Assembly: GCF_002252625.1 (NCBI RefSeq)
Contig: NZ_NQKW01000007.1
Coordinates: forward strand, 62,001 to 126,000
Length of the DNA: 64,000 nt
Reading direction: 5' to 3'
From: Synechococcus sp. 1G10
Lineage (GTDB): Bacteria; Cyanobacteriota; Cyanobacteriia; PCC-6307; Cyanobiaceae
Below the pieces are notes generated by a model. That model saw only the letters and a list, made by a program, of their open reading frames with translations. It did no database searches and was not told where the DNA came from. Below are positions 10,087-11,043 of the stretch, piece after piece. The translations under genes and the position numbers were made by a program. The stretch's first letter is position 1, and each line of letters begins with the position of its first letter.

Positions 10087-10131
10087 TCCTGAGTAGGCCC
10101 TGAGCCGCTGCCGCTGGGGCAACGCCAGGGG

Positions 10132-10171
10132 CATGGGCGCATCCTCGCTGGGGTTGGACGGGGGTGGCACT
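10132..10171. repeat. R1 repeat, copy 6
   Basis: Well-conserved R1 ending GGGGGTGGCACT. It lies 35 bp before the DUF6883 gene. Confidence 0.82.
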
Positions 10172-10205: not shown

Positions 10206-10535
10206 ATGCTCCCCCATGCAGACCAGGCGGTTGTCGAGAAGGCCAAGATCTGCGACTACCTGCTCTCAAGCGTGCATCCAGTCGGAAGATTCAAGGCCAG
10301 GGTGTTCCTCTCCCTCGGCTACACCCTCGAAGCCTGGACAAGACTTCGTGACGACCTTCTTCACTATGAGCGGAGCGGAGTGGTTGAGCGGATCGAGAGC
10401 AGCGCCTACGGGATGAGAGTTATGATCAAGGCTAGATTAGAAGGCCCTAATGGAACTTCAAAGCAGTTCCGCACAATCTGGCTGATTTCCGATCACTCCA
10501 ATCAGCCAAGGCTCATCACCGCATTTTCGGAGTAA
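10206..10535 (+). CDS. DUF6883-domain protein
   Basis: 109 residues: MLPHADQAVVEKAKICDYLL, GRFKARVFLSLGYTLEAWTR and FRTIWLISDHSNQPRLITAF. I recognise the DUF6883 pattern; its function is unknown. In many bacteria it is followed by a DUF4926 gene, as here 3 bp downstream. Position among TA operons and behind an R1 repeat suggests a TA-like pair, but this is inference. ATG at 10206 chosen over the longer frame. Confidence 0.7.
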   Translation: MLPHADQAVVEKAKICDYLLSSVHPVGRFKARVFLSLGYTLEAWTRLRDDLLHYERSGVVERIESSAYGMRVMIKARLEGPNGTSKQFRTIWLISDHSNQPRLITAFSE

Positions 10536-10538
10536 GTC

Positions 10539-10772
10539 ATGCTTGCCTTGCACCAGACAGTTGCTCTCACCCAGGACATTCCAGAGACGGGGCTTCAGTC
10601 GGGCGATCTCTGTGCTGTCGTTGCTATTCACGATCCCGAAACCTATGAGGTTGAGTTCGTCGCCGCATCCGGACGCACGCAATCCCTGCTGACGCTTTCA
10701 TCAGCCAGTCTTCGAGCGATTGGTGATCAGGATCTGATCGCTGTGCGTTCATTGGCTACGGTCAATCCCTGA
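10539..10772 (+). CDS. DUF4926-domain protein
   Basis: 77 residues with HQTVALTQDIPETGLQSGDL, GAVV-like AVVAIHDPETYEVEF and a short C-terminal tail. DUF4926 proteins are small SH3-like beta proteins of unknown role. The gene starts 3 bp after DUF6883, so the two are surely co-transcribed. Could be the immunity or antitoxin member of the pair. Confidence 0.7.
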   Translation: MLALHQTVALTQDIPETGLQSGDLCAVVAIHDPETYEVEFVAASGRTQSLLTLSSASLRAIGDQDLIAVRSLATVNP

Positions 10773-10789: not shown

Positions 10790-10850
10790 CTCCTCGCTGC
10801 CCAGGATCCGCCGGGGTACGTCCTGCGCTGGGGCGGGGGCATGTTTGTTG
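10790..10850 (-). pseudogene. HNH-like fragment next to R2
   Basis: Minus-strand DVPRRILG joined to EELSEAE, two family segments normally far apart, so this copy has an internal deletion. It abuts R2 copy 5. Confidence 0.55.
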
Positions 10851-10949
10851 TTGAGCCCGTCAGGCCATCGCCCCTGCTGGGATCCCTTCTGGTGTGAGCG
10901 CCTGGCGGCTGCAGCCAACCCGGCTCAGGTTGTTGGTGTGCCGCCCCAG
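10851..10949 (+). repeat. R2 repeat, copy 5
   Basis: R2 with a slightly altered left end; both internal palindromes are kept. 94 bp upstream of brnT. Confidence 0.82.
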
Positions 10950-11043
10950 TCCCCTCCGATCTCCAAAACCGATGGGCAGGCTTCAAGCAAAGCGGCGTGA
11001 ACCAGCAGCCTGGCGCGCCGAAAAGGTATAGATTCAGCAAAGT

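What the first reader, a model, noticed from the sequence alone, without database searches (positions are those of the whole stretch)
10206..10772. DUF6883-DUF4926 pair as a candidate uncharacterised TA-like module
Two small genes 3 bp apart sit behind an R1 repeat in the same slot occupied by known TA operons elsewhere in the array. Neither domain has an assigned role. Position in a TA array is an independent hint that this is a toxin-antitoxin or toxin-immunity pair.
Basis: partly seen in the sequence, partly recalled or inferred. Interest (0 to 1): 0.72.

Follow-up and report, generated by a model that had tools for sequence, protein, structure and literature searches.

The report
RNase-like toxin with immunity gene
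Two tiny neighbouring cyanobacterial genes of unknown function are, on strong computational evidence, an RNA-cutting toxin (DUF6883) and the small protein that neutralises it (DUF4926); the same pair is used as a swappable warhead on phage proteins, but nobody has yet tested it in cells.

Summary
In detail: DUF6883 (10206-10535) and DUF4926 (10539-10772), 3 bp apart, lie 34 bp behind a repeat that also precedes HigBA, DUF433-DUF5615, TacA-GNAT and VapBC operons. The toxin-antitoxin/immunity reading is supported and sharpened. (1) The pair is near-obligate: 111 of 118 non-redundant DUF6883 proteins have DUF4926 directly downstream, across at least seven phyla and on plasmids. (2) DUF6883 is the C-terminal domain of MuF minor-capsid and portal proteins in prophages and phage contigs, usually with DUF4926 as next gene. 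One phage contig carries CdiA_C and Tox-REase-5 in the same portal slot; a gut Firmicute element has DUF6883-DUF4926 as an orphan cassette behind a 110-nt linker repeat. (3) A confident model of the window protein (pLDDT 93.6) has one significant PDB match, the CDI toxin CdiA-CT Kp342 (6CP9, BECR-fold tRNase), with counterparts of its K-Y-H-R-T active site in order. (4) DUF4926 is an SH3-like barrel. (5) One relative keeps DUF4926 intact beside a broken DUF6883. Toxicity, substrate and binding are untested. Most likely: BECR-fold RNase toxin (probably tRNase) plus SH3-like immunity protein; a new member of a known kind.

The parts
10123..10171 (+). Copy of the 49-nt 'R1' repeat; ends 34 bp before the DUF6883 start codon
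   Evidence: the repeat finder family D3, 86% to reference; core pattern 7 in window vs 0 in shuffles; 8 in genome, all in this array
10206..10535 (+). DUF6883 gene, 109 aa: predicted BECR-fold RNase toxin (three helices, four strands)
   Evidence: Pfam E 3.8e-26; AF2 pLDDT 93.6, pTM 0.83; Foldseek top 4 PDB hits all 6CP9, E 5.4e-5 to 2.5e-4
10245..10259 (+). Codons K14 to Y18 (helix 1), predicted catalytic Lys and Tyr
   Evidence: K 98%, Y 97% of 119 sequences; order as K157/Y160 of Kp342 and K204/Y208 of EC3006
10275..10295 (+). Codons H24 (loop) to K30 (helix 2), predicted active-site or RNA-contacting residues
   Evidence: H24 74%, K30 100% of 119 sequences; H24 would correspond to H170 of Kp342 (inference)
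10509..10520 (+). Codons R102 to T105 (last strand), predicted substrate Arg and catalytic Thr
   Evidence: R/K 84%, T/S 94% of 119 sequences; spacing +3, the same as R252/T255 of Kp342
10539..10772 (+). DUF4926 gene, 77 aa: predicted SH3-like barrel immunity/antitoxin protein
   Evidence: Pfam E 3.5e-18; SH3 strand order in AF2 model; SH3-domain PDB matches prob 1.00, TMt 0.63-0.70
10796..10955 (+). Further array repeats directly downstream of the pair
   Evidence: the repeat finder D6 (10796-10839) and D1 (10819-10955)

Best explanation
The two genes form a stand-alone toxin-immunity (toxin-antitoxin-like) operon. DUF6883 is a small BECR-fold ribonuclease of the CdiA-CT Kp342/EC3006 and colicin D type, with a predicted Lys14-Tyr18-(His24)-Arg102-Thr105 active site plus invariant Lys30. 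It would stop growth by cutting RNA, most likely tRNA, when free. DUF4926, translated immediately after it, is an SH3-like barrel that binds and blocks the toxin. The same pair serves as an exchangeable C-terminal warhead plus immunity gene on phage MuF and portal proteins and in polymorphic-toxin arrays; in bacteria and plasmids it circulates as a mobile cassette, here inside a repeat-separated TA array. Shown here: genes, pairing, fusions, orphan cassette, predicted folds, residue conservation. Inferred: RNase activity, tRNA target, toxicity, direct DUF4926 binding.
For: Pairing: 69 of 72 cyanobacterial genomes with DUF6883 also have DUF4926, against 9 of 220 without (Fisher p 8e-53); 111 of 118 non-redundant DUF6883 have DUF4926 immediately downstream. 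Toxin slot: MuF-DUF6883 (L073, L102; DUF6883 E 1.3e-20 and 9.1e-25), VG15/MuF-like L101, portal-DUF6883 (L083, L084) with DUF4926 as next gene or in frame; in L084 further portal copies carry CdiA_C and Tox-REase-5. Orphan cassettes: L074 linker present three times (100/85/68%), each before a different C-terminal domain, one being DUF6883+DUF4926. Fold: pLDDT 93.6, only significant PDB hits are 6CP9 chains, repeated with the longer model; BFVD best hits are two phage minor capsid proteins, TM 0.89 and 0.86. Active site: K14 98%, Y18 97%, T/S105 94%, R/K102 84%, H24 74% against K157, Y160, H170, R252, T255 (PMC9086364). Degeneration: Synechococcus sp. J7-Johnson has a broken DUF6883 next to an intact DUF4926. 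Plasmids: pair on Rubrobacter, Nitrosococcus, Meiothermus and Stanieria plasmids. Array of TA operons in the window.
Against: No experiment shows toxicity, RNase activity or binding. There is no sequence-level match to 6CP9 or any solved BECR toxin (best E 0.07, unrelated), so the link is structural and rests on predicted models. Fold-search alignments were not shown residue by residue, so the active-site correspondence is by order, spacing and secondary structure only. H24 is absent in a quarter of sequences, and two relatives have Asp at Y18. DUF4926 is not exclusive to DUF6883: 14 of 31 top-scoring DUF4926 loci lack DUF6883 directly upstream. DUF6883 occurs without DUF4926 behind restriction operons in Agrobacterium and Rhizobium plasmids. 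SH3 matches are individually weak (E 0.01 or higher). pTM 0.66 for the joined model does not establish docking.
Confidence: 0.83

Rival explanations
1. Toxin-immunity pair, but DUF6883 acts on another target: an rRNA or mRNA nuclease, or an RNA- or ribosome-binding inhibitor that does not cut.
For: The BECR superfamily includes tRNA, rRNA and mRNA nucleases and the gyrase inhibitor ParE (PMC9086364). Substrate cannot be read from fold. RelE/HigB-type structures appear among weaker matches.
Against: The only significant PDB match is an isoacceptor-specific tRNase, and the conserved Lys-Tyr-Thr plus His/Arg set is the one used by those tRNases.
Confidence: 0.3
2. Classical type II toxin-antitoxin module with autoregulation, in which DUF4926 is also the operon repressor.
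For: Small two-gene operon inside a TA array; frequent on plasmids; neighbours include HicAB, ParE, Phd and PIN families. DUF4926 also follows ParE/RelE-type toxins in L052 and L065.
Against: DUF4926 is an SH3-like barrel with no recognised DNA-binding domain. Gene order is toxin first. No sigma-70-like promoter found near the pair.
Confidence: 0.2
3. Anti-phage or abortive-infection system in which DUF4926 senses infection and releases the DUF6883 nuclease.
For: Neighbours include restriction-modification families; DUF6883 lies directly behind a restriction endonuclease gene in two plasmids; relatives on phage proteins suggest phage conflict.
Against: No match to any PADLOC defence model; most copies are isolated pairs; no sensor domain seen.
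Confidence: 0.12
4. Not a toxin: a structural or nucleic-acid-handling accessory pair that phages attach to head proteins.
For: MuF and portal proteins act in DNA packaging; DUF6883 fusions to SdhE and FolK frames exist; DUF6883 is common in ordinary chromosomes.
Against: Portal slot in L084 alternates DUF6883 with CdiA_C and Tox-REase-5 toxin domains; orphan-cassette repeat; near-invariant charged residues at the predicted BECR active site; broken DUF6883 beside intact DUF4926.
Confidence: 0.07

Closest known systems
CdiA-CT / CdiI of Klebsiella pneumoniae 342 (PDB 6CP9), BECR-fold tRNase toxin and immunity protein
   Same: Best and only significant solved-structure match (prob 1.00, TM about 0.73). 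Helices first, then a four-stranded sheet. Lys-Tyr early, then His, then Arg and Thr in the last strand (PMC9086364). Immunity gene adjacent.
   Different: No detectable sequence similarity. CdiI Kp342 is a 116-aa protein of nine strands and one helix; DUF4926 is a 77-aa SH3-like barrel. The window pair is stand-alone, not attached to a CdiA filament.
MuF polymorphic toxins of temperate phages (Zhang 2012 PMC3482391; Jamet 2017 PMC5576092)
   Same: DUF6883 is found as C-terminal domain of MuF proteins with a short downstream immunity-like gene.
   Different: No paper in the library names DUF6883. The window copy has no carrier. Portal proteins as toxin carriers were not described in the passages read.
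Type II toxin-antitoxin systems with BECR-fold toxins (RelBE, HigBA, BrnTA)
   Same: Small two-gene operon, plasmid and TA-island setting, RNase-type toxin fold in the broad BECR superfamily.
   Different: Antitoxin has no recognised DNA-binding domain; gene order toxin-first (also seen in HigBA and BrnTA); no RelE/HigB/BrnT Pfam match for DUF6883.
Orphan toxin-immunity cassettes of CDI and Rhs loci
   Same: L074/L081/L082: repeated linker followed by exchangeable domains, DUF6883+DUF4926 being one cassette.
   Different: The window copy shows no trace of a parent polymorphic-toxin gene; it sits among unrelated TA operons.

Membership tests
BECR-fold RNase superfamily | Helices plus four-stranded antiparallel sheet of the BECR core | tested here: met
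   AF2 H12-19, H27-36, H44-57, then strands 59-66, 69-79, 85-95, 102-108; pLDDT 93.6; Foldseek to 6CP9 E 5.4e-5
BECR-fold RNase superfamily | Kp342/EC3006-type Lys-Tyr-Thr active site with His and Arg | tested here: met
   K14 98%, Y18 97%, H24 74%, R/K102 84%, T/S105 94% in 119 sequences, same order and secondary-structure positions as published residues; no residue-level superposition was available
BECR-fold RNase superfamily | RNase activity | not testable with these tools
   Needs expression and RNA analysis
Kp342-type CdiA-CT sequence family | Detectable sequence homology to the solved toxin | tested here: not met
   Profile A1 against all PDB chains: no 6CP9 hit at E up to 10; similarity is structural only
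Polymorphic-toxin C-terminal domain with immunity gene | C-terminal position on different carrier proteins | tested here: met
   MuF carriers L073, L102; portal carriers L083, L084; another carrier in L123
Polymorphic-toxin C-terminal domain with immunity gene | Immunity gene directly downstream | tested here: met
   DUF4926 after DUF6883 in 111 of 118 non-redundant cases, including fused contexts L083, L084, L102
Polymorphic-toxin C-terminal domain with immunity gene | Orphan cassettes with shared linker and exchange with other toxin domains | tested here: met
   L074 110-nt linker x3; L084 portal copies with CdiA_C and Tox-REase-5
Polymorphic-toxin C-terminal domain with immunity gene | Toxicity neutralised by the cognate immunity protein | not testable with these tools
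   No expression experiment possible
Type II toxin-antitoxin system | Antitoxin with DNA-binding domain that autoregulates | tested here: not met
   DUF4926 matches no DNA-binding family and models as an SH3-like barrel; indirect regulation not excluded
Type II toxin-antitoxin system | Compact two-gene operon in a TA or mobile context | tested here: met
   3-bp gap, R1 array of TA operons, plasmid copies
Known anti-phage defence systems (PADLOC) | Match to a PADLOC-DB v2.0.0 model | tested here: not met
   No hit for either protein
SH3-like fold (DUF4926) | SH3 barrel strand order with a short turn helix before the last strand | tested here: met
   Strands 118-121, 135-143, 146-152, 158-165, turn, 169-171 of the joined model; SH3 domains 1tg0, 1zuk, 2f2v prob 1.00

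The most novel reading that the evidence does not exclude
Bacterial and plasmid copies, including solitary DUF4926 genes, defend against phage-delivered DUF6883: virions carrying MuF- or portal-DUF6883 inject the RNase on infection, and host DUF4926 neutralises it, so the chromosomal pairs would be captured parts of a phage-versus-host and phage-versus-phage toxin system.
Probability: 0.15. Interest if true: 0.8.

Novelty: new member of a known kind. Interest (0 to 1): 0.56.

Why it matters
Two Pfam families without an assigned role, found in roughly a quarter of the cyanobacterial genomes sampled and in several other phyla, receive a specific and testable function. The prediction names active-site residues and a solved structural relative. 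It links ordinary chromosomal TA arrays to the exchangeable toxin domains that temperate phages carry on head proteins, and it lets annotators recognise DUF6883 as a toxin domain in phage and polymorphic-toxin proteins.

Tried and rejected
Sequence search of the DUF6883 and DUF4926 profiles against the PDB found no credible relative. tblastn of a cyanobacterial DUF6883 against the annotated phage collection found nothing; fusions came from plasmids and IMG/VR instead. Three viral scans gave no relatives and a first broad alignment was not conserved enough to scan with. PADLOC, NCBIfam and PHROGs give no match for either window protein. No paper names DUF6883; the only paper naming DUF4926 lists it among domains on a viral contig. 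The joined model was meant to show docking, but only pTM (0.66) is returned, so no interface claim is made. No promoter was found; the one terminator-like site is at chance level. The idea that DUF6883 is just a structural tail of portal proteins was dropped once further portal copies with known toxin domains were found in the same contig.

Full report
What is there. The window holds a 109-aa DUF6883 gene (10206-10535, +) and a 77-aa DUF4926 gene (10539-10772, +) separated by 3 bp. Each family has a single copy in the 3.34-Mb genome. Its core occurs 8 times in the genome, always on the same strand of this array, and copies precede HigB/HTH, DUF433/DUF5615, TacA/GNAT and VapB/PIN operons. In relatives (Cyanobium and Synechococcus contigs L033-L036) the pair is conserved as a block while the order of flanking blocks changes, and R1 lies about 70 bp before the gene in L034 and L036 but not in L033 or L035. 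It behaves as a cassette in a shuffling TA array.

The pair is a unit. In 292 cyanobacterial genomes, 72 have DUF6883 and 78 have DUF4926, 69 in common (Fisher p 8e-53). Among 118 non-redundant full-length DUF6883 proteins from all loci, 111 have DUF4926 immediately downstream, mostly with overlaps or gaps below 50 bp. The seven exceptions are two restriction operons in Rhizobiales plasmids (L077, L080), one MuF-type protein (L101), two long or unusual proteins (L114, L123) and two others (L112, L115) that were not followed up. The pair occurs in Cyanobacteria, Proteobacteria, Acidobacteria and Chloroflexi, on plasmids of Actinomycetota, Gammaproteobacteria, Deinococcota and Cyanobacteria, and in Bacillota (L074). 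Conversely, 14 of 31 best DUF4926 loci lack DUF6883 directly upstream; some follow ParE/RelE-type toxins. DUF4926 is therefore also found alone or beside other toxins. That sample was chosen by score, not at random.

DUF6883 sits where toxins sit. In an Anoxybacillus plasmid prophage the MuF minor capsid protein ends in DUF6883 (Phage_Mu_F 196-303, DUF6883 355-463), followed by an overlapping 56-aa gene. In IMG/VR contigs, L102 is MuF-DUF6883 followed by DUF4926, L101 is a MuF/VG15-like protein ending in DUF6883, L083 is a portal protein ending in DUF6883 followed by DUF4926, and L084 has portal-DUF6883-DUF4926 in one open frame. In L084 further partial portal copies follow; one ends in CdiA_C (E 1.3e-7), another in Tox-REase-5 (E 2.5e-9). 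In the Subdoligranulum element L074 (the same in phage-called contigs L081 and L082) a 789-aa protein is followed by two orphan reading frames that begin with the same linker (110-nt repeat, 85% and 68%) and end in different domains; the first is DUF6883, followed by DUF4926. These are the hallmarks of exchangeable polymorphic-toxin domains with cognate immunity genes as described in PMC3482391 and PMC5576092.

Fold and active site. Against the PDB only one entry is significant, 6CP9, the CdiA-CT/CdiI complex of K. pneumoniae 342 (four chains, E 5.4e-5 to 2.5e-4, prob 1.00, TM about 0.73); the next hit has E 0.02. The matched chains of up to 119 residues exceed the 116-residue immunity protein, so they are the 126-residue toxin (lengths in PMC6851490). 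A second, joined model gave the same hits. In the viral library the best matches are two phage minor capsid proteins (TM 0.89, 0.86). Kp342 is a BECR-fold tRNase that cuts uncharged tRNA-Ile(GAU), with active-site residues K157, Y160, H170, R252 and T255; the review describes a Lys-Tyr-Thr triad with His and Arg (PMC9086364). In 119 DUF6883 sequences K14 is 98%, Y18 97%, H24 74%, R/K102 84%, T/S105 94%, and K30, G69 and W92 are 99-100%. K14 and Y18 lie in helix 1, H24 in the next loop, R102 and T105 in the last strand, in the order and roughly the spacing of the CDI enzymes. This correspondence is inferred from order, spacing and secondary structure; no residue-level superposition could be made. 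There is no sequence-level similarity to 6CP9, which the review says is usual for BECR toxins.

DUF4926 is modelled as an SH3-like barrel with a C-terminal helix and matches SH3 domains (prob 1.00, TMt 0.63-0.70, weak E). It has no recognised DNA-binding domain, so a classical autoregulating type II antitoxin is less likely than an immunity-type inhibitor. CDI immunity proteins are known to be structurally diverse, so the difference from CdiI Kp342 is not an argument against.

Degeneration and selection. Both genes evolve under purifying selection, DUF4926 more strongly (dN/dS 0.08-0.28 against 0.23-0.49, leaving out one very close pair). In Synechococcus sp. J7-Johnson the DUF6883 gene is broken by a frameshift at its start and an internal deletion that removes the region of Y18, H24 and K30, while DUF4926 is intact. 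Loss of the toxin with retention of the antidote is the pattern expected of a toxin-immunity pair; the reverse was not seen, but this is one case.

Neighbourhood. Of 118 immediate neighbours of about 60 cyanobacterial pairs, TA and restriction families recur (HicB 5, Uma2 4, DUF2281 3, PIN 2, ParE 2, Phd 2, DNA methylases), while none is among the listed recurrent families of 111 control genes. Only the top 25 families are printed in each case, so this is supporting, not quantitative, evidence; many neighbours are ordinary genes.

Conclusion. Best explanation: a BECR-fold RNase toxin (probably a tRNase) with an SH3-like immunity protein, stand-alone here, shared with phage-borne polymorphic toxins. 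Confidence 0.83 for the toxin-immunity reading with a BECR-type toxin; about 0.55-0.6 for tRNA as substrate. Toxicity, cleavage and binding remain untested. Novelty: a new member of a known kind, built from two previously unassigned families.

Noticed in passing
L084:3588-10321 (IMG/VR contig): Several tandem partial phage-portal genes, with different C-terminal domains (DUF6883+DUF4926, CdiA_C, Tox-REase-5): portal proteins appear to serve as carriers of exchangeable toxin domains.
   Followed up: partly
L122:1747-2571 (+) and L111:1486-2322 (-): DUF6883 read in frame behind housekeeping genes: FolK-like (with VapBC upstream and DUF4926 downstream) and SdhE (Sdh5, E 2.8e-18; DUF4926 downstream). 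Possibly module insertion at the 3' end of these genes.
   Followed up: partly
L077:961-4300 and L080:961-4300 (Rhizobiales plasmids): DUF6883 without DUF4926 overlaps the end of a BPTD_3080-family restriction endonuclease gene, so it may have joined a restriction operon.
   Followed up: no
L052, L053, L065: DUF4926 directly downstream of ParE/RelE/YoeB-type toxins that already have CopG- or Phd-like antitoxins, a possible three-gene arrangement.
   Followed up: partly
window 1-25000; genome C19 59-83 kb: R1 repeat (8 copies, all + strand, only in this array) precedes most TA operons; whether it is a promoter or a recombination site is unknown. Block order differs between related Cyanobium and Synechococcus contigs.
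   Followed up: partly
L074:6961-7404 and L081:6967-7545: A second orphan cassette behind the same linker carries another domain with no Pfam or NCBIfam match, a candidate unknown toxin.
   Followed up: partly
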